42,954 nt of DNA from an uncultured Bacilli bacterium. Its GTDB lineage: Bacteria; Bacillota_I; Bacilli_A; RF39; UBA660. Under the pieces are notes generated by a model. The model was not told where the DNA came from and ran no database searches. It saw only the letters and a program-made list of their open reading frames with translations. Both the position numbers and the translations under genes were made by a program. Of this stretch, positions 2,303 to 31,602 are shown piece by piece; within the stretch, counting starts at the first letter, position 1, and the number at the start of each line of letters is the position of its first letter. The stretch spans positions 1-42,954 of the forward strand of contig CALVJB010000008.1 in assembly GCA_944332025.1 (NCBI GenBank), given 5' to 3'.

Positions 2303-2524
2303 TCATCTTACAAGTTTCTTAACATAAGGACTGTCCACAGATTTATATCCTTTAAATGTTTCTGTACTAGCAATATCTTCTCTTCTATTTTGTAAAGCAA
2401 TAACTTCATTAGCTTTATTCAATTCAAACGCATCTGCTTTATAAATGATTTTTACAACTTTACTTGACCTTACAACACTAGTACCAGGCAAAGCTTTTTC
2501 TTTCATTTTATCCGCCATTCCCAT
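2303..2524 (-). CDS. Small hypothetical protein between the two DUF3048 genes
   Basis: A 73-residue, basic, soluble protein beginning MGMADKMKEKALPG. The start is supported by a GGAGG Shine-Dalgarno nine bases upstream of ATG 2524, and the gene ends eight bases before a strong terminator, so I regard it as real. It has no signal peptide, membrane helix or motif I recognise. It follows the DUF3048 gene 2542-3585 after 17 bases and is probably cotranscribed with it. Confidence 0.7.
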   Translation of the reverse strand: MGMADKMKEKALPGTSVVRSSKVVKIIYKADAFELNKANEVIALQNRREDIASTETFKGYKSVDSPYVKKLVR

Positions 2525-2541
2525 AATTTAAAACCTCCATA

Positions 2542-3585
2542 TTAATTAACAACTACATCTCTACTACTAGGCATCACTTGAATAAAAGTATTACCATCAC
2601 TCACCTTTATTTCATCACCATTACTATAAGAATAATAAGTCTTACCACTTCTGGAATCTTTCTCCCAAGTAATAGGCATCATATAACCATTAGTAATATA
2701 ATAACCAACTCCTGTTCCTACTGTATCTAAATCTTGTCTACCATAATCATCAAGAGTACTATTATCTACTTTCATAATAATTATATTTTTATAATGATAT
2801 TGTTCTCCACTATCTCTATCAGTATGAGGAATACAATTCATATAACGAAGATAATAACCATTATCACTATCATAAGTATAACTTCTAACTTCACTATTTG
2901 AATAAGGAATATCAATACTAGTTAAACTTCTACCTTCTAAACTACAATTCTCCCCATCACAGTTTAATGAATTATCAGTTTTCTCCAAATCTACCTTTTT
3001 ACTAACATAATTTAAATTTTCATAATCACTAGATGTAGTATCGTAACCTAACTCTTCTGCTTTTAAATATAAATTATCAATACTAGTAAAAACGTTATGA
3101 GGAGCAGCAATACTACTATCACGATAAAAGGCATCATCATAAAGTCCATTAATATTATCAACAGAAAGAGCCTTTACATCATTCTCTGCATAAGTACTCC
3201 ATCCATAATGAGCATATATTGCATCATTTTCAAGAGCATAATCTAAAAAGTAATGTCTACTACTTCTAACAGGTCCAATTACACTAGTATCAACATCTTT
3301 ATATATAGCCATTATCCTAGTTAACCCACCTTCTACTATTATCTCATAAGTTAAATAAGCATCTTGTAATCCAACTTGTTCATCATTTTCTACATTATTA
3401 TCAATCATAACAGCAATAGGACGTTTATTACTATTAACATCATAAACATCTAACTCTTCTTTTTTTTCTACTAAAGGAATATCATTACCAAGATAAATAA
3501 AATAATAGTAAGCTCCTCCTATCAAAGCTAATAGTAAAATTATAAATATAATAAATGTAATTATTCTTTTCCTCTTCTTTTTCAT
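2542..3585 (-). CDS. DUF3048 (YerB-type) membrane-anchored protein, copy 2
   Basis: Paralogue of the protein at 936-2012: both carry DVYDVNSN(K/R)RPIAVMIDNN, GLTRIMAI, GPVRSSRHYFLDYALE, AHYGWST and a shared C-terminal block ending in an SDGNT-I-QV motif. A basic N-terminus and one membrane helix (about residues 8-30) precede the outer domain. Compared with copy 1 it has an insertion containing two cysteines (NCDGENC) near the middle. Start: ATG 3585 after GGAGAGGTGG. The tandem arrangement implies local duplication followed by divergence. Function unknown; envelope location inferred. Confidence 0.85.
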   Translation of the reverse strand: MKKKRKRIITFIIFIILLLALIGGAYYYFIYLGNDIPLVEKKEELDVYDVNSNKRPIAVMIDNNVENDEQVGLQDAYLTYEIIVEGGLTRIMAIYKDVDTSVIGPVRSSRHYFLDYALENDAIYAHYGWSTYAENDVKALSVDNINGLYDDAFYRDSSIAAPHNVFTSIDNLYLKAEELGYDTTSSDYENLNYVSKKVDLEKTDNSLNCDGENCSLEGRSLTSIDIPYSNSEVRSYTYDSDNGYYLRYMNCIPHTDRDSGEQYHYKNIIIMKVDNSTLDDYGRQDLDTVGTGVGYYITNGYMMPITWEKDSRSGKTYYSYSNGDEIKVSDGNTFIQVMPSSRDVVVN

Positions 3586-4320: not shown

Positions 4321-4863
4321 ATGAATGAAACTGATAAAAAAAGTTTAGAAAAAGCTAAAAAACTATTTTCAAGTGGAGATATTAACAACATTGAAGTTGG
4401 TACTGTTAAAGGATTACAACAAATTCATAAATATCTATTTGAAGGCTTATATGATTTTGCAGGTATCATCAGAAAAGAAAACATTTCTAAAGGAAATTTT
4501 AGATTCACCAACACTCTATATTTAGAAGACATTTTAAAAAAAATAGAAACAATGAAAGAATCTACACTAGATGAAATAATTGATAAATATGCAGAAATGA
4601 ATATCGCTCATCCTTTTTTAGAAGGAAATGGTAGAAGCACAAGAATTTGGTTAGATTTAATATTAAAGAAAAATTTAAATAAAATAGTTAATTGGGAAAA
4701 AATTGATAAAAGATTATATTTACAAGCAATGGAACGAAGCCCAATTAACACTTTAGAAATTAAAACTTTAATCGAAAATAATCTAACAGATGATTTAAGT
4801 TTAACTACAATTTTTAAAGGTATAGAAACTTCATATTATTATGAAACAGATGAATATCATTAA
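4321..4863 (+). CDS. fic: Fic-domain protein, class III-like (protein adenylyltransferase)
   Basis: A 180-residue single-domain Fic protein. The catalytic loop HPFLEGNGR (97-105) is intact, with the histidine base and the Gly-Asn-Gly-Arg anion-binding segment. Fic enzymes transfer AMP from ATP to a target hydroxyl. The protein strongly resembles, from memory, class III Fic proteins such as Neisseria NmFic: [26 protein letters not shown] and a C-terminal helix SYYYE (171-175). In class III the Ser-xxx-Glu-Gly/Asn motif blocks ATP and tyrosines in it are auto-AMPylated; here the last position is Thr (T176). NmFic-type proteins modify topoisomerase subunits, which is only a suggestion here. Start: ATG 4321 after AAGGTGA rather than the GTG nine bases earlier. 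Solitary, with its own terminator. Confidence 0.9.
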
Positions 4864-4951: not shown

Positions 4952-5599
4952 TTACTTTTTTAACGTATATGTAAATGCTTTATCTTCTAAGGTTTCAGGA
5001 ACAAAACGATGTCTTAACGGTCCAAATGTTAAACGGGAAAATGCATTACCACTAGCACCTACATCAATCATCATTCTAAGCTGTATTATCTTATCATTAT
5101 TCTTTTTAGCATTATCTAATATTAATAAACATTCACAGTCTAAAAAATTATCAGGATTAAAAATCTCCTTCATTTCTGAAAGTGATAATTCCATTACTTT
5201 ACTAGATAACACTTCTATATTATTATTTTCATAAGAATAAATTCTTTTTATAACATTACAAGAACTATCATCACAAACTAAGAATTCATCATTTATACAT
5301 TTTTTAGGCATATCAAGAATATCAAGATCATTATCAGGATTAGTAATAGAAAAAGCAGTATGTCTTACTGAGAAAAAATTTATATCAGTAATAGCTATTT
5401 CAACAATATCACTTAACAAAGGACCATCTGATAAACGATATTCAATCTTATAATAATGCTCATTATCTTTTAAATAGCAGGATTTCTTATTTTGAAAAAT
5501 AATCTCCGGATTAAGTCTTTCTATCTCTTATAAACATGATATTAAAGGTTCAAAAGATAATACTTCCTATCGATTTTGTAATAAAGATATTAAAGTCAT
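4952..5599 (-). pseudogene. Broken gene with two in-frame stops near its 5' end
   Basis: Reading on the minus strand from ATG 5599, which has a GAAAGGA Shine-Dalgarno, the same frame continues to 4952 (216 codons) but is interrupted by TAG at codon 11 (5567-5569) and TAA at codon 24 (5528-5530). The segments between and after the stops read as ordinary protein (for example NPEIIFQNKKSCYLKD), so one gene has decayed by point mutation. A promoter is still present upstream (5657-5685). Initiation downstream, for instance at TTG 5419, would give a 155-residue fragment, but that lacks a good ribosome site. The protein family is not recognised; no membrane helices or metal motifs are seen. Confidence 0.75.
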
Positions 5600-5797: not shown

Positions 5798-6763
5798 ATG
5801 GAAGCAAAAGATATTAAGAATGTTGCCTGTGTTGGGGCAGGTGTAATTGGTTATAGTTGGGCTTTATATTATTCTCTAAAAAAACTATCAGTAAATGTTT
5901 ATGATATAACTGATGAAGTTTTAAACCTTGCTAAGGAAAGAATACATGAAAGCCTACTAAACTTAAAGAAAAATAATGTTGTTACAGAAGAAGAAATTAA
6001 AGAAATTGAAAGTAGGATTAGTTATACTACATCTATGGAAGAAGCAGTTAAAGATGTAGAATTTATTACTGAATCTGGTCCTGAAAGTTATGATATTAAA
6101 AGAAAAATGGTTGAAGAAATGGAAAAATATACTAAAGATGACACAATCATCTCATCATCTACATCAGGACTATTAATCACTGAAATAGCAAAAGATGCTA
6201 AACACAAAGAAAGATTTATAGGAGCACATCCTTATAATCCACCACATTTAATACCATTAGTAGAACTTACTAAAGGCGACTATACAACTGATGAAGTCAT
6301 AAACACTGCCAAAGAGTTTTTCCAATTAATTGGTAAAGAACCTGTAGTATTACAAAAAGAAGCTTTAGGATTTATCTGTAATCGTATTCAAATGGCTGTT
6401 TATAGAGAAGTATGTAGTCTTGTAATGAATGGTGTATGTACTATAGAAGATGCTGATAAAGCTGTTACTTATGGCCCAGGATTAAGATGGGCTATTATGG
6501 GACCTAGTCTAGTCTTTGAATTAGGTGGTGGTAAAGGTCATATAGATGGACTTATGAAACACTTAAACCCATCTATTAGTTTATGGTTACACGATATGGC
6601 AGACTTTAAAGACTTTCCTGAAGATTTTCCAGAAATAGCAAGAAAAGGTGTAGAAGAAGCCTTAAAAAATAGACCTAAAGAAATAGGTAATGATGATGAA
6701 TCACTTGCCGAATATCGTGATAAAATGCTAATAGAAATATTAAAATTACATAACAAACTATAA
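5798..6763 (+). CDS. 3-hydroxyacyl-CoA dehydrogenase family oxidoreductase
   Basis: A 321-residue NAD(H)-dependent dehydrogenase. The N-terminal Rossmann fold has GAGVIGYSWA; SSSTSGLL and HPYNPPHLIPLVEL supply the Ser and His of the family's catalytic set, and GFICNRIQ starts the C-terminal helical domain. The block YGPGLRWAIMGP is closer to the L-gulonate/L-carnitine dehydrogenase branch than to beta-oxidation enzymes, so the substrate may be a small beta-hydroxy acid rather than an acyl-CoA; this is inference. No fatty-acid oxidation genes are nearby. Start ATG 5798 has GGAGG seven bases upstream, inside a hairpin. It ends at a terminator shared with the convergent ABC exporter. Confidence 0.85.
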   Translation: MEAKDIKNVACVGAGVIGYSWALYYSLKKLSVNVYDITDEVLNLAKERIHESLLNLKKNNVVTEEEIKEIESRISYTTSMEEAVKDVEFITESGPESYDIKRKMVEEMEKYTKDDTIISSSTSGLLITEIAKDAKHKERFIGAHPYNPPHLIPLVELTKGDYTTDEVINTAKEFFQLIGKEPVVLQKEALGFICNRIQMAVYREVCSLVMNGVCTIEDADKAVTYGPGLRWAIMGPSLVFELGGGKGHIDGLMKHLNPSISLWLHDMADFKDFPEDFPEIARKGVEEALKNRPKEIGNDDESLAEYRDKMLIEILKLHNKL

Positions 6764-6781
6764 TTAAAAAGAAAGAACAAA

Positions 6782-6805
6782 AAAAGAGGAAGGCTAACCT
6801 CTTTT
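6782..6805. terminator. Bidirectional terminator
   Basis: AAAAGAGG (6782-6789) pairs with CCTCTTTT (6798-6805), flanked by T runs in both directions, between convergent genes. Confidence 0.85.
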
Positions 6806-8535
6806 TAATTTTCACTTTCAGCAGTATATAAATTTTGATATTGCTTACAACTTTCTAACAACTCTTTATGAGTACCACTACCAACTAATTTACCTTTTTC
6901 TATTATATGAATAGTATCAGCATCTACAATAGTAGATAATCTATGAGCAACTATGATCACGGTATGATCTTTTACTAAATCATCAATAGTCTTCTTAATA
7001 TATTCTTGAGACTCATTGTCAAGTGCACTAGTCGCTTCATCAAAAAGGATTATCTTAGTATTTAAAAGAAGAGTTCTAGCAATAGCAAGTCTTTGTTTTT
7101 GTCCCCCTGATAAATTAATACCACCTTCCCCAATAACAGTATCATATCCTTTAGGTAAACTCATAATATAATCATCTATATAAGCTCTTTTACAATACTC
7201 TCTCACTTCCTCTAAACTAACATCTTCCTTAACTAATCTAAAATTATCAAGTATTGATAAGTTAAATAGAAAAGGACTTTGTCTAATAATAGAAATATTA
7301 CCTCTTAAAGACTCTTCAGTTAAATCTTTAATATTAATACCATCTATAGTAATAGAACCAATATTAGCATCAAAATATCTAAGTAACAAGTTAAATATTG
7401 TACTCTTACCATTACCACTACGTCCAACAATAGCAATCTTTTTATTAGGAACAATCTCTAAATTAAGACCATTTAAAGTATAATCTTCATCTTCTTTATA
7501 TTTAAACTTAACATTATTAAATTTAATAACACCTTTAGTATTATCTAACTCTTTAGAACCATACACTTCATCTTTATATAAATCATTATTTAATAATTCC
7601 CCTATTCTTTTTAAAGAAACAGTTACTTTATTAAAACTAACACCAAAGTCACTAATACTCTCAACTACTTCATCAATTCTCCATATATAAGACTCCATCA
7701 TTAAGAAAACAGAAAGACTAATAACACCATCTAAGTAACACTTACCAGTTGTAAAAAGAATTAAAAACTGAATTAAGAAATAAGCTAAGTTATTAAAACC
7801 ATAATACCATCTTTCATATTTTCTAACTTTAGCAGTATGACTATAAAGTTTATCTATAACTTTAGAAATATTATTCTCTATTATTTTAGTAATACCAAGT
7901 GACTTAATCTCTCTAATTCCTGTAATATTTTCTGTCGCTACTTTTACATAAGAGTCACTTTCTTTTTTAATATTTTCTTGGCTTTTCTTAATTCTAGGAA
8001 AGAACTTCATCGAAATAAATCCCATAATAACAGCAAGTAACATAATTTCTATAAATAATACAAGAGATATTCTAATTGCAATAACTATAACTATAATTAC
8101 GACTACTGCTTTACAAATAAGTCTAACCATCTTAGATAATAATTCCATTACTCTATCAGGATCTGTATATAAACGATTAATAAACTCGCCAACACCAATC
8201 TCTTCAAAAGCAATAGCAGGTAACTTATCTATCTTTTTATATAGGTCTTTACTTACATTTTTTGTAAACTTAATCTCAAAATATGTATATAAAGCATCTC
8301 TTGGTATCTGTAAAAAAGTGTAGAAGATAATGTAAATACTTTCATACATTGCTAGATAAAAGATAAATGAATTTAGGTCTTTAGCAGTCAATGCCTCAAC
8401 TGCAACACCCCAAAAATATACAGATATTAAAGCAGGTAAATAAGATAATGCAACTAGAATAATATAAAGAACAAGCTTTAATTTATCATCTTTAATATAA
8501 TCCCAAAATATTTTAAAATGTTTTAACTTTTTCAA
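6805..8535 (-). CDS. ABC exporter, fused permease and ATPase (half-transporter)
   Basis: A 576-residue type IV ABC exporter subunit: about six membrane helices in residues 15-310, then the ATPase domain with Walker A GRSGNGKST (371-379), Q-loop Gln (419), signature LSGGQ (475-479), Walker B ILFDEAT (about 496-502), D-loop SALD and H-loop His (531). All catalytic residues are intact. Such half-transporters work as homo- or heterodimers exporting drugs, lipids or peptides; no partner gene is adjacent, so a homodimer is likely. Start: TTG 8535 after GGAGGTG; no ATG fits. Its long leader holds a small reading frame and a terminator just before the ribosome site, suggesting induction by antibiotics that stall ribosomes. 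Confidence 0.9.
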   Translation of the reverse strand: MKKLKHFKIFWDYIKDDKLKLVLYIILVALSYLPALISVYFWGVAVEALTAKDLNSFIFYLAMYESIYIIFYTFLQIPRDALYTYFEIKFTKNVSKDLYKKIDKLPAIAFEEIGVGEFINRLYTDPDRVMELLSKMVRLICKAVVVIIVIVIAIRISLVLFIEIMLLAVIMGFISMKFFPRIKKSQENIKKESDSYVKVATENITGIREIKSLGITKIIENNISKVIDKLYSHTAKVRKYERWYYGFNNLAYFLIQFLILFTTGKCYLDGVISLSVFLMMESYIWRIDEVVESISDFGVSFNKVTVSLKRIGELLNNDLYKDEVYGSKELDNTKGVIKFNNVKFKYKEDEDYTLNGLNLEIVPNKKIAIVGRSGNGKSTIFNLLLRYFDANIGSITIDGINIKDLTEESLRGNISIIRQSPFLFNLSILDNFRLVKEDVSLEEVREYCKRAYIDDYIMSLPKGYDTVIGEGGINLSGGQKQRLAIARTLLLNTKIILFDEATSALDNESQEYIKKTIDDLVKDHTVIIVAHRLSTIVDADTIHIIEKGKLVGSGTHKELLESCKQYQNLYTAESEN

Positions 8536-8556
8536 AAGAATACACCTCCAACAAAA

Positions 8557-8625
8557 AAACTACTTTACAGTAGTTTCCATCAAAATAATATTAAAAGCAT
8601 GAGACATCTTTTAAAACACTACTGT
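8557..8625 (-). promoter_or_regulatory. Attenuator: terminator and competing antiterminator in the ABC exporter leader
   Basis: On minus, AAACTACTGTAAAGTAGTTT (8576-8557) forms an 8-bp stem running into seven T (8559-8553), an intrinsic terminator directly before the GGAGGTG of the exporter. Upstream, ACAGTAGT (8625-8618) is complementary to ACTACTGT (8574-8567), so pairing there would destroy the terminator's 5' arm. A further stem, ATGAGAC (8675-8669) with GTCTCAT (8605-8599), encloses the antiterminator arm and starts exactly at the leader peptide's start codon. Which state forms would depend on translation of the leader. Confidence 0.7.
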
Positions 8626-8675
8626 AAAAAAATGTAATAAAGTTTTCTATTTACACTAGTAACTAAAAGTCTCAT
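8619..8675 (-). CDS. 18-residue leader peptide of the ABC exporter
   Basis: ATG 8675 to TAG 8619 encodes MRLLVTSVNRKLYYIFLQ. An AGGAAGAG ribosome site lies about nine bases upstream. The stop codon falls inside the antiterminator arm ACAGTAGT, and the first seven bases form one arm of the competing stem, so a ribosome moving or stalled on this frame would directly choose between structures. This resembles the leader peptides of antibiotic-inducible ABC genes of Bacillota (bmrB-bmrCD type). Short length makes chance possible, but the placement is hard to explain otherwise. Confidence 0.6.
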   Translation of the reverse strand: MRLLVTSVNRKLYYIFLQ

Positions 8676-8704
8676 CCTAATCACTCTTCCTTTCAAGTGA
8701 CATA

Positions 8705-8733
8705 ATAATATCATATAGATACATACTTGTCAA
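8705..8733 (-). promoter_or_regulatory. Promoter of the ABC exporter leader
   Basis: On minus: TTGACA (8733-8728), 17-base spacer ending TGA, TATTAT (8710-8705). Consensus -35 and extended -10. The transcript would begin about 25 bases before the leader peptide. Confidence 0.8.
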
Positions 8734-8751
8734 ACTACACATCTTATAAAT

Positions 8752-8780
8752 TTGAAAGAAATACTTAATAGAGTTATAAT
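8752..8780 (+). promoter_or_regulatory. Promoter of the PASTA protein gene
   Basis: TTGAAA (8752-8757), 17-base spacer, TATAAT (8775-8780), divergent from the exporter promoter 20 bases away. Confidence 0.75.
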
Positions 8781-8798
8781 ATAGCCGAGGTGATAATT

Positions 8799-9638
8799 TT
8801 GATTATATGTCCAAATTGTAAAACTGAAAATGATGATGATGCTAAATTCTGTAAAAACTGTGGTTATTATTTCTTAGAAGAAAATAATAAGCAAGATAAT
8901 AATAGAAGAGAAAGCAAAAAGAAAGATAAAGTGAAACATAAAACCAAAACTAAAAATAAGACAAAAGTAAAAAAGGAAAAAGTAAAAGCTCCTAAAAACA
9001 AACAATATAATGATAAACCAAAATCTAGTATCTTTACCAAAATACTTTTACTATTCTTTATTCTTTTATCTATAGGACTATTAGTAATTGCAAGTATCCT
9101 AGGATATCACTACTATGAAGAAAATAATATAGAAGTTCCTAATGTAATAGGATATTCTTATGAAGAAGCGACAGTAATACTCGATACTGCAAACTTAAGT
9201 TATGAAATGAAAGAAGTAGAAACAACTAATCAAGAAGAGATTGGTATTGTCGTAAAGCAAAGTAAGAAAGGCGGCTCTAAAACCCATGAAAATGCTGTTA
9301 TAACTCTAACAGTAGGAGTTCTAGATAATCACGTTACTGTTCCAAATGTTATTGGTATGACTTTAGAAGAAGCCACAAGTACTTTAAATAAAAATAACAT
9401 ATCTTATAGAATAGAATATGAAGAAACTACTGATGAAGAAAACAATACAGTTATAAAACAAAGTATAAGAGCAGGCAAAAAAATAGAGAATACAGAAATT
9501 ATAACTATTACAGTTGCAAGAAACACAAATAATAATAGTGATACTGATAATAATGAAACAAATAATGAAGAAACAGATAATAATAATAAGGAAGATGAAT
9601 CATCTAATCAAAACCAAGAAAAAAATCTACAAAACTAG
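8799..9638 (+). CDS. Zinc-ribbon membrane protein with two PASTA domains
   Basis: About 279 residues. Order: zinc ribbon with C4, C7, C18 and C21 (CPNC...CKNC), a Lys-rich linker (about 30-75), one membrane helix (about 77-100), two PASTA domains (about 107-168 and 171-232; VPNVIGYSYEEA and VPNVIGMTLEEA), and an Asn/Asp/Glu-rich tail. The zinc ribbon is therefore cytoplasmic and the PASTA repeats outside. PASTA domains bind muropeptides or beta-lactams in PknB kinases and penicillin-binding proteins, but here neither a kinase nor a transpeptidase domain is present. I prefer TTG 8799, eight bases after GAGGTGA; GTG 8790 lies within that site. Likely a wall sensor or scaffold, by inference. Confidence 0.8.
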   Translation: MIICPNCKTENDDDAKFCKNCGYYFLEENNKQDNNRRESKKKDKVKHKTKTKNKTKVKKEKVKAPKNKQYNDKPKSSIFTKILLLFFILLSIGLLVIASILGYHYYEENNIEVPNVIGYSYEEATVILDTANLSYEMKEVETTNQEEIGIVVKQSKKGGSKTHENAVITLTVGVLDNHVTVPNVIGMTLEEATSTLNKNNISYRIEYEETTDEENNTVIKQSIRAGKKIENTEIITITVARNTNNNSDTDNNETNNEETDNNNKEDESSNQNQEKNLQN

Positions 9639-9648
9639 TAGATTTTTT
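9620..9648. terminator. Bidirectional terminator between convergent genes
   Basis: AAAAAATCTAC (9620-9630) pairs with GTAGATTTTTT (9638-9648). It overlaps the last codons of the PASTA gene and touches the stop of the next gene. Confidence 0.85.
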
Positions 9649-10594
9649 AATTTAAAGAATTACCTTTAACATCAACCTTTTCTATATTAACATTAACATT
9701 ATTACTCAAACTATCTGGAAGTCCTTTATTTAATAAGATACTATCTTGCCTTACACCATAAGTATCTAATCCATTTAATCTAAGTACATCTGGATCTACA
9801 CTATGTTGATAATCAGCATCATCACTAGGTCTTAATAAAAATTCACTATTATGAATATCAACATAATTTAACGAATCATTATAACGAGCCAAGCCTTCTA
9901 AAAGACTATCGGTAAAACTATCATTTAATCCAGTATCAACTTTAATAACACCTTCACCATAATCTTCTAAATCTGCTCCTTCTGGTACAGCAATAGTAAC
10001 ATTAGGCATAATCTGATCACCTACTGCAACTTCAATATCAGAAGGAATTAAAGTTGGCTCTGCTACACTTTTATCATAAACACCCTTTTGAATACTACCG
10101 CCAAAAGATTCTTTCATTCCAATAGCAAGTAAATCAGCATGATTATTACCTTTATTATAATTACCTATTACTTTGTAGTCATCACCACCATAATTAGTTA
10201 ACGCTACAAAGCACTCTGTACCATCTTTATTTAACTCATTTATATCTCTAACTTCAACATCAAGTCCTGTCGCTTCCAACGAATCTTCTGCCTGCTTCAT
10301 CTGTTCATCACTAATACCATCATTAACAAGTACTACATTTAGTGTTGATAAATCTTCAGTGCTAGTAGTAAAAGAATATGGCTCTTCAACTGGTTTTGGC
10401 TCCACAATTGGACCATCACTAGACCCTCCTCTCATAATATTACTACAACCAACACCTAAAGCAGAAACACCTACTGTAACTCCCACAATAGCACCTAACA
10501 TTTTTCTTTTTCTAGCAAGTAAACTTCCCCTCCTAGATTTTCCAATCATCTCAGGAGCTATATAAATATTACTACCAACTTTTCTCTCACTCAT
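9647..10594 (-). CDS. Putative exported or lipid-modified protein, unknown family
   Basis: 315 residues. A basic 32-residue N-terminal segment precedes the hydrophobic stretch MLGAIVGVTVGVSALGVGC, which looks like a lipoprotein signal with Cys at about 50. The start at ATG 10594 has AGGG eight bases upstream, so the long pre-signal segment appears genuine; an internal start at Met32 would give a classical lipoprotein. The rest is acidic and contains a region (about 85-135) alternating strands and helices. No catalytic motif recognised. It lies 9 bases after the 113-residue membrane protein and probably shares its transcript. Confidence 0.65.
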   Translation of the reverse strand: MSERKVGSNIYIAPEMIGKSRRGSLLARKRKMLGAIVGVTVGVSALGVGCSNIMRGGSSDGPIVEPKPVEEPYSFTTSTEDLSTLNVVLVNDGISDEQMKQAEDSLEATGLDVEVRDINELNKDGTECFVALTNYGGDDYKVIGNYNKGNNHADLLAIGMKESFGGSIQKGVYDKSVAEPTLIPSDIEVAVGDQIMPNVTIAVPEGADLEDYGEGVIKVDTGLNDSFTDSLLEGLARYNDSLNYVDIHNSEFLLRPSDDADYQHSVDPDVLRLNGLDTYGVRQDSILLNKGLPDSLSNNVNVNIEKVDVKGNSLN

Positions 10595-10945: not shown

Positions 10946-11694
10946 TTCAAAGCCTCCTCATCTTTATTTTTTTTAGGTCTACCACGTCTTTTAACCTCTT
11001 TAGGCTTTTCTTCTTCTTTAACATTTTTATCTTCCTTAACTTCTTCTACTACTTTCTCTTCTTTCTTCTCTTTTTCTTTAGATGTTTCTAACTCTTTTCT
11101 TTCAATATATTCTTTATATAAATAGATATATCTAACAAACATAAACTGATATATCGCTTCCAACAAATAAACAACTACATCTTCAAAACTATTAACTGAT
11201 ACTAAAGACACAATCAAACTAATAGCAATTATACCTATCAACAAATAATAATATTGTCCATTATTAATCTCTGCTAAAGGACTATCAGATAATCTTAAGT
11301 CTTTACCAATAACAGTACTAGTAAAAAAAGAATAACCAAAATAAAGTGTAATTAATACATTAAAAGCTAAATTCAAAATAGAATCAAATCCAAAAGATTG
11401 AAATATTGTAAATAAACTAGCAAAAGTTGTAAGTAAATAAAATACAAACATAACTACATTTAAATAATCAAAATATTTCTTACCAAACTTAACTCTAATC
11501 AAAATAAAATAAATTAAACTAATTAAATAAATACTATTATGATTAATAATAGATCTAAATATATCTCCTGCTGCCATATGACTTTGAATAGCAAAAGATT
11601 GTGAAAGAATTATAAGCACAACTAAAAGTCCAATTAAAATATAAGTAATCATACTAGGACTATCAAAAAAATCTTTTTCATTACTTTTATTCAT
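10942..11694 (-). CDS. Polytopic membrane protein with charged C-terminal tail
   Basis: 250 residues with about six membrane helices in residues 15-190, then a Lys/Glu-rich cytoplasmic tail (about 195-250) ending with KRRGRPKKNK, an AT-hook-like motif. The charged tail may contact nucleic acid or simply be a flexible tether. First gene of a three-gene minus-strand unit (10942, 10604, 9647), with an extended -10 (TGCTATAAT) 32 bases upstream. Family unknown. Confidence 0.65.
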   Translation of the reverse strand: MNKSNEKDFFDSPSMITYILIGLLVVLIILSQSFAIQSHMAAGDIFRSIINHNSIYLISLIYFILIRVKFGKKYFDYLNVVMFVFYLLTTFASLFTIFQSFGFDSILNLAFNVLITLYFGYSFFTSTVIGKDLRLSDSPLAEINNGQYYYLLIGIIAISLIVSLVSVNSFEDVVVYLLEAIYQFMFVRYIYLYKEYIERKELETSKEKEKKEEKVVEEVKEDKNVKEEEKPKEVKRRGRPKKNKDEEALK

Positions 11695-11725
11695 TAAACA
11701 TACCTCCTATACTTACTCCATAATA

Positions 11726-11734
11726 ATTATAGCA
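11726..11734 (-). promoter_or_regulatory. Extended -10 of the 9647-11694 operon
   Basis: On minus TGCTATAAT (11734-11726); the -35 region is poor. The ribosome site AGGAGG follows before ATG 11694. Confidence 0.5.
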
Positions 11735-11749
11735 TAATTTTTAAGAAAA

Positions 11750-11776
11750 AAACATTAATTTAACTAACTAATGTTC
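11750..11776 (-). terminator. Terminator overlapping the end of the 207-aa gene
   Basis: On minus AACATTA pairs with TAATGTT, followed by TTTTTT; the stop codon at 11760 lies in the loop. It ends the ezrA transcript. Confidence 0.6.
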
Positions 11777-12383
11777 TTTTTCTATAAGCAGTTTTCTCTT
11801 CTACTTTATAATTTTTCTTAATATCTTTAAGGCTATCATATTTCCCCCCATAATTTTCTGCAACTAACTTAATAAAAAGTTCTTTTTCATAATAACCATC
11901 AAGTAAATTATTACCATTTTTTATAAGTCCATAGACCTTCATAGTATCAACATTATCACCATTTATTGTATCGAAAGACCAGTCACTAACTTTATAAATA
12001 TCAAATTTATCAGCAGTAACATCTTGATTATAAATTAAATAGTAACCACATCTTAAAGTAACTTGTTTAGTATTATTATTAAACACTACTTTAGACTCAT
12101 AAACATCACAAAATTCATCACCAGAAAAATTATTTTTTATTCTTGTTACTAAATTACTATTAATTAATTCATATAAGTATACTACATTATCACTAGTTCT
12201 ATTATTATAATTAATAGCATTAACACCTACAGTTTTAGCATTATATCTAAATACTTCATACTTCTCTTTTTGATTATTATTAATAACTATAAATAAAAGT
12301 ATCGCACTACATATTAAACAAGTAACCGCTACTGTTAAAAACTCATATGTTCCCCTTCCATTCTCATTAAATCTTACTTTCAT
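11760..12383 (-). CDS. Single-pass exported protein, pilin-like N-terminus
   Basis: 207 residues. A short positively charged leader (MKVRFNENGRG) is followed by TYEFLTVAVTCLICS and a long hydrophobic helix, recalling type IV pilin-like proteins, although the Glu stands at +3 rather than +5 after the Gly, so prepilin cleavage is uncertain. Two cysteines in the outer domain (about 85 and 109) could pair. The gene overlaps the end of ezrA by 17 bases and is cotranscribed with it. No pilus assembly genes are in view. Function unknown. Confidence 0.55.
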   Translation of the reverse strand: MKVRFNENGRGTYEFLTVAVTCLICSAILLFIVINNNQKEKYEVFRYNAKTVGVNAINYNNRTSDNVVYLYELINSNLVTRIKNNFSGDEFCDVYESKVVFNNNTKQVTLRCGYYLIYNQDVTADKFDIYKVSDWSFDTINGDNVDTMKVYGLIKNGNNLLDGYYEKELFIKLVAENYGGKYDSLKDIKKNYKVEEKTAYRKRTLVS

Positions 12384-14082
12384 AAGCTTTTATTTTTCCT
12401 TCTATTGTATCATCAACTAATTTAACAGTATCAACACATAATTTCAAAGCACTATCATAATTGCCTTTATAGAATAGGGAACTAGCTCTATCAAGGCCAT
12501 TATTAATATCTTCATGTAAGCTTCTATATCTATTACCATACACTATTAAAGCTTCTGTTAACTTAGCTTTATTAATCATATTTAATGTTGTATTATAAAG
12601 TTTTAAAACTAAGTCTCTCGCTGTATCTACTCTCGTATTAAGAGTCTTAATAACAATAGGTTTACGCGATAATTCTTTAACTACTTCTTCTATCGCTTCA
12701 TTCGCTTCATTAAGTTCAACAAAATAGTTATCACTAATTATAGGTAGTTTAAACTCTCTCATCTTTTCTTTACATTCTCTTAATAGTTTATCTATCTCAC
12801 CTAACTGTTCTCTAGCTCTTTGCTCATCTTCATACATATTACCTAAACTCTTCAAAGCTACATCTAAAGTTGATTCAGTCTGTTTAAGCTTTAAAGTAAG
12901 TTCATCAACTTCTTTAGTAACTAATGAATAAGGAGTTACTTTATTCTTAACTCTACCTAAAAGATTTTTATATTCGTCTTTAATAGAGGTTAAATCTTTA
13001 TTAACTTCATTAATAATCTTAACATCCTCTTCATTAAGGTCATACATATTCTTAATATCATCTAACTGGTCATAAATATCACTAACTATTTTATCAGTCT
13101 TCTTTAATTTCTTACCAAAATCTCTAATACCTTCATCATATACTTTTCTTGAAAGTCTTTCTTTCTCAAAATCAACAAAAATACTATCTAAATAATCAAG
13201 AATAGTCTTAAGTTCAAACATACAATCTTCTAGATTCAAGACCTTAATTCTATCTAAAATAACTCCTACATTCTTACGAGACTCTTCTAAGTTATAATCA
13301 AGATTTAAATATTCAATAGGATAACCTTTTTCTATCATATCTTTAGAAGTATCTTCTATCTCTTTAACTCTCTTAGGAATCAACTGTTTACACATAAGCA
13401 TTAGATCAGGAACTTCTGATACTACTATTTCCATATGTTCTATCATCGTATCCAAAGCTTTTACAATATGTACTACTTCACTATACATATTATCATCCAT
13501 TGCTTTTTCAAACTCTAAAAATCTTTTCTCAATATTTTCAAGTTGTAACTCTATCGCTTCCGCCATCTCTTCATAAAGATTCTTATGTTCATTATATTCT
13601 TTATTTAAAGCTCTATACTTAGTTTTAAGTTTACTAATAATACTACGATACTTCTCTTCACTTAAAGTAATCTCTTTTATCTGATCAAGTAAATCATCAG
13701 CTTGTTCTCTAACTTTATAAACTTCAATTTCACATTTTGCAATTCTAAATTTAGCAGTCTTATATTCTTTCTTATCTAAAAGAGTATCTAATTCTATAAG
13801 CATATCATCTATCTTAGGAATATCTTCATTTTTAATCGTATCAAATCTCTCTTCCCACTTTTGATACTTCTCTTCCATTTTCTCATTCTTGATAATTGGC
13901 TCTAACTTAGAAAGCTCTAAAAGTACAGGAGTACTTCCAATTAAGTTTTTTTCTCGCTCTAAACTATCATATATATCTTGATAATATCTCTTTTGTTTCC
14001 TTTTTAAAATAGTAATAATAAGGACTACTAATATTAAAACAACAATAATAGCACTAATTATATATAATAACGTATGTCCCAT
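12367..14082 (-). CDS. ezrA: Septation ring formation regulator EzrA
   Basis: 571 residues. One N-terminal membrane helix with the amino end outside (YIISAIIVVLILVVLIITIL), then a long, almost wholly helical, spectrin-like cytoplasmic region made of coiled-coil repeats, including a SLEREKNLIGSTPVLLELSKL-like segment typical of EzrA. EzrA binds FtsZ, limits Z rings to midcell and links division to wall synthesis. Length is close to the usual 560-570. Start ATG 14082 after GAGGTGA. It is divergent from rpsD; ezrA, rpsD and tyrS being close together recalls the Bacillus arrangement. Cotranscribed with the 207-residue gene downstream. Confidence 0.9.
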   Translation of the reverse strand: MGHTLLYIISAIIVVLILVVLIITILKRKQKRYYQDIYDSLEREKNLIGSTPVLLELSKLEPIIKNEKMEEKYQKWEERFDTIKNEDIPKIDDMLIELDTLLDKKEYKTAKFRIAKCEIEVYKVREQADDLLDQIKEITLSEEKYRSIISKLKTKYRALNKEYNEHKNLYEEMAEAIELQLENIEKRFLEFEKAMDDNMYSEVVHIVKALDTMIEHMEIVVSEVPDLMLMCKQLIPKRVKEIEDTSKDMIEKGYPIEYLNLDYNLEESRKNVGVILDRIKVLNLEDCMFELKTILDYLDSIFVDFEKERLSRKVYDEGIRDFGKKLKKTDKIVSDIYDQLDDIKNMYDLNEEDVKIINEVNKDLTSIKDEYKNLLGRVKNKVTPYSLVTKEVDELTLKLKQTESTLDVALKSLGNMYEDEQRAREQLGEIDKLLRECKEKMREFKLPIISDNYFVELNEANEAIEEVVKELSRKPIVIKTLNTRVDTARDLVLKLYNTTLNMINKAKLTEALIVYGNRYRSLHEDINNGLDRASSLFYKGNYDSALKLCVDTVKLVDDTIEGKIKAYESKI

Positions 14083-29352: not shown

Positions 29353-31305
29353 TTATTGAAGGGCAAGCTCAAACGGATCAGATTTAGTACCTGTTCCTGA
29401 TGTTATCTCCACGCTAGATTTTAGATTTAAGGATGGCCGGACACCGCACGAATAGGTCGGAGCGTCGTAGCTCGCATAGCCATTGCTGCTCACGCTACGC
29501 ACGCGAGACGACATATATGGTGTTAAGGTCCAATAATCAGTTGTTAACCCTGTACTTGAATAGCTACCTTTTACGGCATATCTTTCAAATTGTCCTGCCA
29601 TTAATTCTCCCATTCGAAGTAATCCTACTTTAGATTCTGTACTTGTAGCATACCCTGACATACTGATATCTGTATATTTGGCAAGTTTATAACTTGCACC
29701 ACTTCCTACTGTTCCTAGATACCAAGTTGTATTATCTTCTATCATATCACTATATGTACTATCTACATAACTTGTTAGATATTCCCCATTTAAAAATGTA
29801 CCAATTACACTATTAGTTGAATAATTAACTTCACTATTTGAACTTCCAAATGCACTTGTTATAAATGTTCCAGAATTTTTTAGGGGTTCAGCACTAGTTA
29901 TCTTAGTCAAACCTGAAGTCTCATGACTTACTATTCTATATAGATTATTCTCATCATTTCCAAATCTTACATACTCACCACTATATCTACTTGAAAGTAA
30001 TGTACCTGATAGACTAGTATCATTATCTCCTTCTAAGCGATAGGGATTTTCTATTGTTCCATTACCATCTACGATACGAACGCTAGATTTTAGATTTATT
30101 GATGGCCGGACACCGTACGAATTGGTCGAAGCATTGCTGTAGTCCACATCGCCATCTTCGTACACGTAACGCACGTAAGACGACCTATATGGTGTTAAAG
30201 TCCACCAAATAAGTCCATTATTTAAATAGCCATTAGTATCGCCATTGTTGCTGGATTGATACTCATACATATTTAGTAATCCTACAGATGCTGTTACCGT
30301 TGTTGTTCCATTAGGTCTTGTTATACTTCCTAAACTAGTCGCATCAAGTGTCGCATCCCATACTGCATCTGTTACTATAAAGTCCTCATAATCTCTTAAA
30401 TTGCCTAAGAAACCATCGACACTAGTATCATTTAGCCAATCTTCCATATAACTTCCTTCAAAATTAGTTTGATTACTTGCATTATATGGAATTGCACTTA
30501 TATTCCATTGTGTCACTAATTTAGTAGTATTCGCTTCATTATTAACAGATACTGCTCTCCATAACTTTCCACTATACCAGATGTAGTTATTTGGATCTTC
30601 TCCAGTGATAAATGTATCTACCTCATCATTGTATTGATTATCTTCAGGTATATTAGACAACAATACTTCATTTACAGGACCAGTTGTAACAGGCATCTTA
30701 TCTCCATCTTTACCATAAACATTTATTTGTACTGAGAATTGTAATCCTCCTCCATCTCCTTGAGGATTATAATCTTCATCTACCCACATTCTAAGTCTAT
30801 AATTATTAGACTCGCTAGAATTCATACTACTCGTATATAAACTCATCTCTCCTGATGGTCTTCCTGTAAAGTTATTGGCACTTGCTTCTTCATTATAAAC
30901 TTCTGGTGTCATTAACTCTTCTTCACCATCATCTGTTAATCTAGTTAGATATAACTTTATATTACTTCCATCTATTTTATTAGCACTACTACTAGTTACA
31001 TCTTTTGCAGATATTTCATAATTAATATTAGTATCTCCTGATATATTACTACTTACTGTAAAATCAAAATACTCTCCAGGATTTAATCTTGTCTTACCTG
31101 TTTTATCTGTTGTCGGTAATGCTCCATTTAAACTAATAGTATTATCAGTCTCTTCATATGTCATCGTAATAGATCCTGTTGTTATTGAATTTACTTTAGT
31201 TCCCTCTCCTGTAAATCTAAAAGCTGCATATGACACTCCTATTAATGCTATTACCATTAATAGTATTAATCCTATTATTACTATCTCTTTCTTTGTCTTT
31301 TCCAT
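29353..31305 (-). CDS. Secreted SipW-type/TasA-like protein with two variable lectin-like domains
   Basis: 650 residues. The signal peptide (IVIIGLILLMVIALIGVSYA followed by AFRFTG) is of the SipW-dependent type, then a TasA/camelysin-like beta domain (about 30-205), then two related domains (about 225-430 and 435-650) of the DUF6273-like kind. Each ends WTLTPY...GVRPS-NLKSSV, recalling the formylglycine-enzyme/C-type-lectin fold that displays DGR variable residues. The variable stretches are residues 374-397 and 598-620. The local base composition there is far richer in G and C than the surrounding gene. AGGAGG lies before ATG 31305. Probably a surface or matrix adhesin. Confidence 0.85.
   Translation of the reverse strand: MEKTKKEIVIIGLILLMVIALIGVSYAAFRFTGEGTKVNSITTGSITMTYEETDNTISLNGALPTTDKTGKTRLNPGEYFDFTVSSNISGDTNINYEISAKDVTSSSANKIDGSNIKLYLTRLTDDGEEELMTPEVYNEEASANNFTGRPSGEMSLYTSSMNSSESNNYRLRMWVDEDYNPQGDGGGLQFSVQINVYGKDGDKMPVTTGPVNEVLLSNIPEDNQYNDEVDTFITGEDPNNYIWYSGKLWRAVSVNNEANTTKLVTQWNISAIPYNASNQTNFEGSYMEDWLNDTSVDGFLGNLRDYEDFIVTDAVWDATLDATSLGSITRPNGTTTVTASVGLLNMYEYQSSNNGDTNGYLNNGLIWWTLTPYRSSYVRYVYEDGDVDYSNASTNSYGVRPSINLKSSVRIVDGNGTIENPYRLEGDNDTSLSGTLLSSRYSGEYVRFGNDENNLYRIVSHETSGLTKITSAEPLKNSGTFITSAFGSSNSEVNYSTNSVIGTFLNGEYLTSYVDSTYSDMIEDNTTWYLGTVGSGASYKLAKYTDISMSGYATSTESKVGLLRMGELMAGQFERYAVKGSYSSTGLTTDYWTLTPYMSSRVRSVSSNGYASYDAPTYSCGVRPSLNLKSSVEITSGTGTKSDPFELALQ
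29433..29525 (-). repeat. Variable repeat 1 (C-terminal)
   Basis: Variable core 29446-29514 (23 codons) flanked by bases shared with variable repeat 2: TTAACACCATAT on one side and GGTGTCCGGCCATC on the other. Many variable codons are of the NNC/NNT form (CGC, AGC, AGC, AAT, TAT, AGC, GAC, TAT, TGC), as produced when AAC or AAT in a template is mutated at A. Confidence 0.75.
30100..30197 (-). repeat. Variable repeat 2 (internal)
   Basis: Variable core 30115-30186 (24 codons). It shares invariant bases with repeat 1 but differs at 20 of 69 aligned positions, none synonymous, plus one inserted AAT codon. Confidence 0.75.
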
Positions 31306-31373
31306 TTTTTACTCCTCCTCAATTTATTTTTTCTCACACTAAAAAGAACAGAATATCTCTATCCTGCTCTTAT

Positions 31374-31407: not shown

Positions 31408-31536
31408 CTACAAGTAAAACTGCCTTTTATGCTTAAGGATAAAAACTGCCCCCCCCCAGGTAACATATTGTAAACCTGAAGTTTTTAAAGATTGACGAAT
31501 TAATTTACCCCAGAATTGACGATTTATTTTCTCCAT
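31408..31536 (-). CDS. Small basic ORF containing a G9 tract (possible phase-variable peptide)
   Basis: 42 codons from ATG 31536, with GAAGG seven bases upstream, to TAG 31408. The peptide begins MEKINRQFWGKLIRQSLK and ends VFILKHKRQFYL. Nine consecutive G (minus; C at 31449-31457) encode Trp-Gly-Gly-Ala in the middle. Loss or gain of one G changes the last third and its end. It precedes the diversified surface protein on the same strand. No family recognised; the reading frame could be fortuitous, but the start signal is good. Confidence 0.45.
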   Translation of the reverse strand: MEKINRQFWGKLIRQSLKTSGLQYVTWGGAVFILKHKRQFYL

Positions 31537-31602
31537 AGTTTAACCTTCTTTCTTATCTTTTGTTATCTATATATTAACATAACTTTTCTTAATTAACAAT
31601 CA

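What the first reader, a model, noticed from the sequence alone, without database searches (positions are those of the whole stretch)
29433..30197. Two DGR-type variable repeats in one secreted TasA/SipW-type protein
Seen: aligned cores 29446-29514 and 30115-30186 differ at 20 of 69 bases, with no synonymous change and 19 of 20 in codon positions 1 or 2, while intervening bases and flanks (TTAACACCATAT before, GGTGTCCGGCCATC after) are identical. Every difference can be explained by one template base A changed to something else: AAC to CGC/TAC/AGC/GAC, GAG to GCG/GTG, AAG to ATG/AGG, ACG to CCG/TCG. Known: DGR reverse transcriptases mutate template adenines, diversifying lectin-fold proteins. 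Inferred: both repeats are written from one template, and the diversified protein sits on a SipW-type secreted scaffold. Two variable repeats in tandem domains of one gene is uncommon.
Basis: partly seen in the sequence, partly recalled or inferred. Interest (0 to 1): 0.88.

Follow-up and report, generated by a model that had tools for sequence, protein, structure and literature searches.

The report
Surface protein with two self-mutating patches
An uncultured bacterium targets mutations to two patches of one exported protein using a reverse transcriptase that scrambles the A's of a template; the gene is one of at least 13 such targets in a 1.6-Mb genome, and relatives carry a sister system that stores up to 24 alternative templates plus a 'blank' one that appears to switch its target off.

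Summary
Gene 29353-31305(-) encodes an exported N-terminal domain plus two DUF6273-type domains, each ending in a variable repeat (VR). The genome outside the window has DGR reverse transcriptases (RTs), Avd and template repeats (TRs). Against a TR from another contig, 24 of 26 template-A columns are hypervariable over 17 VRs, versus 2 of 49 other columns (p=4e-15). The window gene is a remote target: 21 strong VR copies lie in 13 genes, and two VRs per gene is the rule in this genus. Corrections: the two VRs differ by a 3-nt indel and by 4 substitutions (of 20) not at template A, so one identical template does not explain both; their exact TR is not in the assembly; both assembled RTs of this cassette type are broken, though relatives have intact ones. 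New: (1) a poly-G tract 143 bp upstream belongs to a conserved leader found at all nine G>=9 tracts of the genome; (2) a second DGR here and in relatives uses arrays of alternative templates (up to 24 plus a null template), and in two species the null sequence occupies the target's VR.

The parts
29353..31305 (-). DGR target gene, 650 aa: exported N-terminal domain plus two DUF6273-type domains, each ending in a VR
   Evidence: ORF and translation; DUF6273 55.2 bits against cut-off 23.5; same architecture in paralogues and relatives
30691..31305 (-). N-terminal domain: membrane helix (residues 5-25) and predicted beta-sandwich, TasA-like by resemblance only
   Evidence: alignment over several target types; model; SipW-type peptidases in genome; no TasA model hit
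30034..30669 (-). Domain D1 (first VR domain)
   Evidence: domain alignments A2, A3
29356..30033 (-). Domain D2 (second VR domain), DUF6273
   Evidence: Pfam 32.2 bits on the domain alone
30104..30189 (-). VR1, 86 nt, with flanking shared ends
   Evidence: A-confined variation against independent TR; orthologue VR 51/68 identical while 3' flank is 119/120
29435..29517 (-). VR2, 83 nt
31449..31457 (-). Poly-G tract (G9 on the coding strand), candidate phase-variable element 143 bp upstream of the start codon
   Evidence: all nine distinct G>=9 tracts of the genome share this context; eight lie 119-221 bp upstream of genes with this N-terminus
31344..31371 (-). Terminator-like hairpin between the poly-G tract and the gene (possible attenuator)
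   Evidence: 1 found, 0.0 expected; same sequence in other leaders

Best explanation
The window gene is a remote (in trans) target of a cellular DGR family with the cassette order target - TR - msl-like - Avd - RT. A TR RNA is copied by an error-prone reverse transcriptase that puts random bases opposite template adenines, and the cDNA replaces the matching VR at the end of each of the two DUF6273 domains. One exported protein thus carries two separately rewritten patches, presumably binding sites. Shown by sequence: RTs, Avd, TRs and VRs in the genome; variation confined to template A; two VRs per target across the genus; VR divergence after species split. Inferred: which TR serves this gene (missing from the assembly), that an intact RT of this type exists in the strain, the lectin-like fold, display on a TasA-like domain, and binding of variable ligands. 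The poly-G leader tract probably adds on/off switching of expression (inference).
For: RTs and Avd in the genome, Avd over NCBIfam cut-off; the best solved match of both RT types is 8ub7, which I know as the BPP-1 DGR RT; TRs downstream of two-VR targets with a shared leader; C49 and C52 overlap by 77 identical bases, joining TR to msl-like-Avd-RT; own TR-VR pairs A 49/98, other bases 2/213; 24/26 A columns hypervariable against 2/49; intact 304-317 aa RTs in relatives; orthologue comparison.
Against: The TR matching the window VRs is not in the assembly. Both assembled RTs of this cassette type are broken: internal deletion on C52; YMDG and frameshift on C41. A few non-A differences and a 3-nt indel remain unexplained by a single template. 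No same-species reads were available to show ongoing change at this gene. Lectin fold not shown.
Confidence: 0.9

Rival explanations
1. DGR relic: the VRs were written by a DGR that this strain has since lost; the gene is now a frozen or drifting leftover, as reported for target genes of Treponema denticola isolates that lack the core DGR (PMC4891356). This rivals the claim of present activity, not the claim of DGR origin.
For: C52 RT has an internal deletion, C41 RT has YMDG and a frameshift, and the TR for the window VRs is absent; precedent in PMC4891356.
Against: The draft lacks at least one cassette end (C57 stops just inside the msl-like gene). Own TR-VR pairs show almost no non-A change (2/213). 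Relatives keep intact RTs.
Confidence: 0.25
2. The window VRs are diversified in trans by the intact C5 reverse transcriptase, not by the msl-type RT.
For: It is the only RT in the assembly without visible damage.
Against: Its templates share other ends (GCGGCGGT ... TCGTTCCGCCTCGTGATGAG), and all six copies of that 3' arm lie on C5. Its template units carry weak Rfam RT-14 RNA matches; the C49 TR stretch does not.
Confidence: 0.08
3. No DGR: ordinary paralogue divergence under positive selection with gene conversion homogenising the flanks.
For: The genes are paralogues, and nonsynonymous change would look similar in a two-copy comparison.
Against: Variation follows adenines of a template found elsewhere (24/26 against 2/49), and TR, Avd and RT are present.
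Confidence: 0.01

Closest known systems
Bordetella phage BPP-1 DGR (RT, Avd, TR, VR in mtd)
   Same: RT related to the solved chain 8ub7, Avd, A-specific TR-to-VR change, VR near the end of a domain
   Different: Cellular, one cassette type serving many remote genes, two VRs per target, extra msl-like ORF, DUF6273 targets
Thiohalocapsa PB-PSB1 DGRs (PMC10907252)
   Same: Many DGR targets in one cellular genome (nine loci, 15 targets); some targets hold several VRs in tandem domains; remote or incomplete loci
   Different: Targets there are mostly conflict-system sensors; here exported DUF6273 proteins with poly-G leaders in a 1.6-Mb genome
Multi-VR DGRs: Marichromatium purpuratum three-VR ORF (PMC3521204) and 31 DGRs with several VRs in one ORF (PMC6642488)
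   Same: More than one VR inside one ORF of tandem paralogous domains
   Different: There rare and partly doubted; here the standard architecture over a genus, repeated in at least 13 genes of one genome
Treponema denticola DGRs (PMC4891356)
   Same: Several remote target genes; several TR types in a species; targets persisting where no core DGR is found
   Different: Other target family; no template arrays reported in the passages read

Membership tests
Diversity-generating retroelement | Reverse transcriptase of DGR type (IGxxxSQ, YxDD) | tested here: met
   C5 RT reads GLPIGNYTSQ and YMDD, intact; msl-type RTs intact in relatives but broken in this assembly
Diversity-generating retroelement | Avd accessory protein | tested here: met
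   C5 Avd 83.4 bits against cut-off 80; Avd-like ORFs of the msl cassettes only weak
Diversity-generating retroelement | TR and VR differing almost only at template adenines | tested here: met
   Own pairs A 49/98, others 2/213; window VRs tested against the C49 TR
Diversity-generating retroelement | The exact TR of the window VRs is present | tested here: not met
   Not in the 95%-complete draft with up to 3 mismatches; an incomplete assembly may explain it, so this lowers only the claim of a complete system for this gene
Diversity-generating retroelement | VR sits in a C-type-lectin fold | tested here: inconclusive
   Models of mean pLDDT 66 and 56; fold search without a lectin hit
Diversity-generating retroelement | VRs vary within a population | tested here: inconclusive
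   No same-species genomes or reads for the window gene; orthologue comparison supports change since species split
DUF6273 (PF19789) | Score over the curated cut-off | tested here: met
   55.2 against 23.5 bits; 72 of 84 domains match at E 0.1
TasA / SipW-dependent proteins | Family model hit to TasA or SipW-type signal | tested here: not met
   No hit in Pfam or NCBIfam at E 0.1; no significant PDB match
TasA / SipW-dependent proteins | SipW-type signal peptidase in the genome | tested here: met
   TIGR02228 over cut-off at two loci

The most novel reading that the evidence does not exclude
In this genus a DGR has become a template library. One exported target gene is served by a tandem array of alternative templates (4 plus one null unit in this genome; 24 plus one null in relative G010) that share homing arms but encode different, always in-frame backbones, so the cell can choose a backbone as well as mutate it. 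A distinct first unit, A-poor and carrying stops or frameshifts, is a null template: placed in the VR it truncates the target, the state found in two species with different null sequences. Together with poly-G leaders on other targets, including the window gene, this gives three layers of variation: adenine mutagenesis, backbone choice and off-switching.
Probability: 0.55. Interest if true: 0.88.

Novelty: new variant of a known kind. Interest (0 to 1): 0.72.

Why it matters
It shows DGR mutagenesis applied at family scale in a very small genome: at least 13 genes, usually with two rewritten patches each, and with a candidate on/off tract upstream of some of them. The sister array system makes an open question directly testable: can DGRs select among stored templates and silence their target, and not only randomise it? 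If so, a DGR would be a programmable cassette switch as well as a mutator, and shared arms with interchangeable interiors would be a natural design for targeted protein engineering.

Tried and rejected
A TR for the window VRs within the genome: not found, even with 3 mismatches. Exact pattern scan of the GTDB species genomes for the inferred TR core: one unrelated phage-like DGR (L082) and one genus member (L083). Viral origin: the window protein and the C5 RT find no relatives in viral contigs, the array pattern none, the msl-type RT only distant ones at 30-38% identity. Fold search: the full-length model gave only weak beta-sandwich hits; the single-domain model was too poor to search. PDB sequence search with the target or N-terminal profile: nothing significant. 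Plain paralogue divergence: rejected by the adenine test. Assembly artefact as cause of the null sequence in the VR: unlikely for G011, where VR and null unit differ by one T and one A-to-G; not excluded for G009, where a 113-nt block is identical. Literature searches for template arrays found none in the open-access library; that is absence from this library, not proof of novelty.

Full report
Observation. The window is contig C8 of an unnamed 1.59-Mb draft genome (101 contigs, 95% complete). The gene at 29353-31305(-) encodes 650 aa.

Template and enzyme exist in the genome. A search with one repeat found 24 related places, 21 of them strong, on 12 contigs in 13 genes. Three reverse transcriptases were found: C5 (354 aa, YMDD, next to an Avd over the curated cut-off), and C52 and C41, each behind an msl-like and a weak Avd-like ORF. 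'msl-like' is only my label for the small first ORF; no family model hits it. Template repeats lie downstream of two-VR targets on C49 and C57 with a shared non-coding leader. The last 77 bases of C49 are identical to the first 77 of C52, so the cassette reads target - TR - msl-like - Avd - RT.

Adenine test. In the four own TR-VR pairs A changed 49 of 98 times and C/G/T 2 of 213 (summed). Over 22 pairs in the genus A changed in 47% and other bases in 4-5%. The window VRs were tested with a template they did not contribute to: with the C49 TR as yardstick, 24 of 26 A columns are hypervariable (three or more bases) over 17 VRs, against 2 of 49 other columns (p=4e-15), and 16 of the 19 window differences in the compared stretch lie on its adenines (p=3.5e-7). 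Related VRs are not independent samples, so the p-values should be read as strength of pattern.

What does not fit one template. Four of the 20 differences and the 3-nt indel are not A changes. The VRs of the genome fall into several backbone classes, some of which look mosaic. VR1 and VR2 were therefore probably written from two related templates (inference). The exact one is not in the assembly; relatives have TRs up to about 90% identical to the inferred sequence.

State of the machinery. In this assembly the C52 RT has an internal deletion after YMDD, and the C41 RT has YMDG and a frameshift. Relatives have intact 304-317 aa RTs with YMDD in the same cassette. C57 ends just inside the msl-like gene, so at least one cassette is unassembled. 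That the strain has lost its active DGR remains a rival at about 0.25.

Genus view. The TR with its flanks is found in 25 of 34 genus relatives and hardly outside the genus. Two DUF6273 domains with two VRs are the usual target architecture. Against the orthologue in G032, the window VR1 is 51/68 identical, while the next 120 bases downstream are 119/120 and the part outside the VRs is 92% identical. Two other orthologue pairs also show VRs more diverged than most of the gene.

Protein. The N-terminus is a membrane helix followed by a predicted beta-sandwich. It is shared with the FGE-like target on C5, with C41-type targets and with repeat proteins. SipW-type peptidases are present, but no TasA profile matches, so the scaffold is TasA-like by resemblance only. 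A lectin fold of the VR domains was not shown.

Poly-G leader. A G9 tract on the coding strand at 31449-31457 lies 143 bases upstream of the start codon. All nine distinct G>=9 tracts of the genome lie in the same context, GGTTTACAATATGTTACCT-Gn with minor variants, and eight are 119-221 bp upstream of a gene with this N-terminus; the ninth is near a contig end. In 442 kb from relatives, six of seven distinct G>=8 tracts lie 72-143 bp upstream of such genes. Tract length differs between syntenic orthologues (C24 G11, G008 G8). A terminator-like hairpin follows before the gene. I infer phase-variable expression; whether through promoter spacing, a leader peptide or attenuation is open.

Template arrays. 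Upstream of the C5 Avd-RT lie five tandem units of about 340 bp with common ends but different interiors. The shared 3' arm occurs six times in the genome: five units and one VR. The VR of the FGE-like target derives from unit 3, with 11 A changes and no other; the next best unit would need 12 non-A changes or gaps. Arrays in relatives hold 2 to 25 units as assembled. Over five VR-unit pairs A changed 70/138 and C/G/T 1/234 (G032 and G004 are near-identical loci, so not fully independent). G010 has 25 units and its VR comes from number 19. All 60 ordinary units keep the frame and stay open for at least 30 codons, while the A-poor first unit (own genome, G009, G034, G031, G011, G010) always brings a stop or frameshift. 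In G009 and G011, whose null units differ, the target's VR holds that null sequence and the protein is cut short. In G009 none of 12 template adenines is changed, and in G011 one of 8, fewer than mutagenic copying would give, so recombination in place of retrohoming is possible. The loci of G032 and G004 are 99.2% identical over 6.4 kb, with 17 of 50 differences inside the 75-nt VR. Rfam RT-14 RNA matches below threshold recur between units. A stretch beside another RT type (G028) also has tandem repeats of about 400 bp.

Verdict. The window gene is a DGR target, a new variant of a known kind because of its scale, its paired VRs and its poly-G leader. The array system with a null template is the most novel part and deserves its own study.

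Noticed in passing
L012 (G000:C5) 11346-12925(-); arrays also in L142-L148, L191, L192: Tandem arrays of DGR template repeats (own genome 5 units, G010 25 units) with shared ends and different in-frame interiors, serving one FGE-like target; the VR matches one unit with A-only changes.
   Followed up: yes
L142 VR at 2036 and null unit at 3194 (reverse-complement offsets); L191 VR at 4550 and null unit at 5202: An A-poor first unit with stops or frameshift; in G009 and G011 the target's VR holds that sequence and the protein is truncated. Possible off template.
   Followed up: partly
window 31449-31457; also C3, C4, C9, C16, C24, C41, C64, C81: All nine G>=9 tracts of the genome share one leader context, eight of them upstream of exported proteins with the same N-terminus; candidate phase-variable tracts.
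   Followed up: yes
window 31444-31560 (-): The poly-G tract can be read inside a short ORF (about 43 codons, ...GLQYVTWGGA...) that recurs in other leaders; possible leader peptide whose frame depends on tract length. Read by eye, not tested.
   Followed up: no
L014 (G000:C41) 8382-8470 and 8678-8766 (-): A third DGR cassette with its own TR and VR in a different target type; its RT has YMDG and a frameshift.
   Followed up: partly
L020 (G000:C24) 2349-2399 (-): Broken TR remnant with intact leader downstream of a two-VR target, followed by ORFs (1088-2331) that look like a transposase; an insertion may have removed the rest of the cassette.
   Followed up: no
L144 and L145 (G032, G004): Array DGR loci 99.2% identical over 6.4 kb, with 17 of 50 differences in the 75-nt VR, while another region compared between the two genomes is about 86% identical: recent activity and possibly recent transfer of the locus.
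   Followed up: partly
L197 (G028:C51) 6331-10044: Six to seven tandem repeats of about 400 bp in the same contig stretch as another RT type; possibly a second lineage of template arrays.
   Followed up: no
L012 11294-11739, 12326-12412 (-); L148 2364-2494: Sub-threshold Rfam RT-14 RNA matches (best 43.4 against 48.1 bits) recur between template units; the template RNAs may carry this structure.
   Followed up: partly
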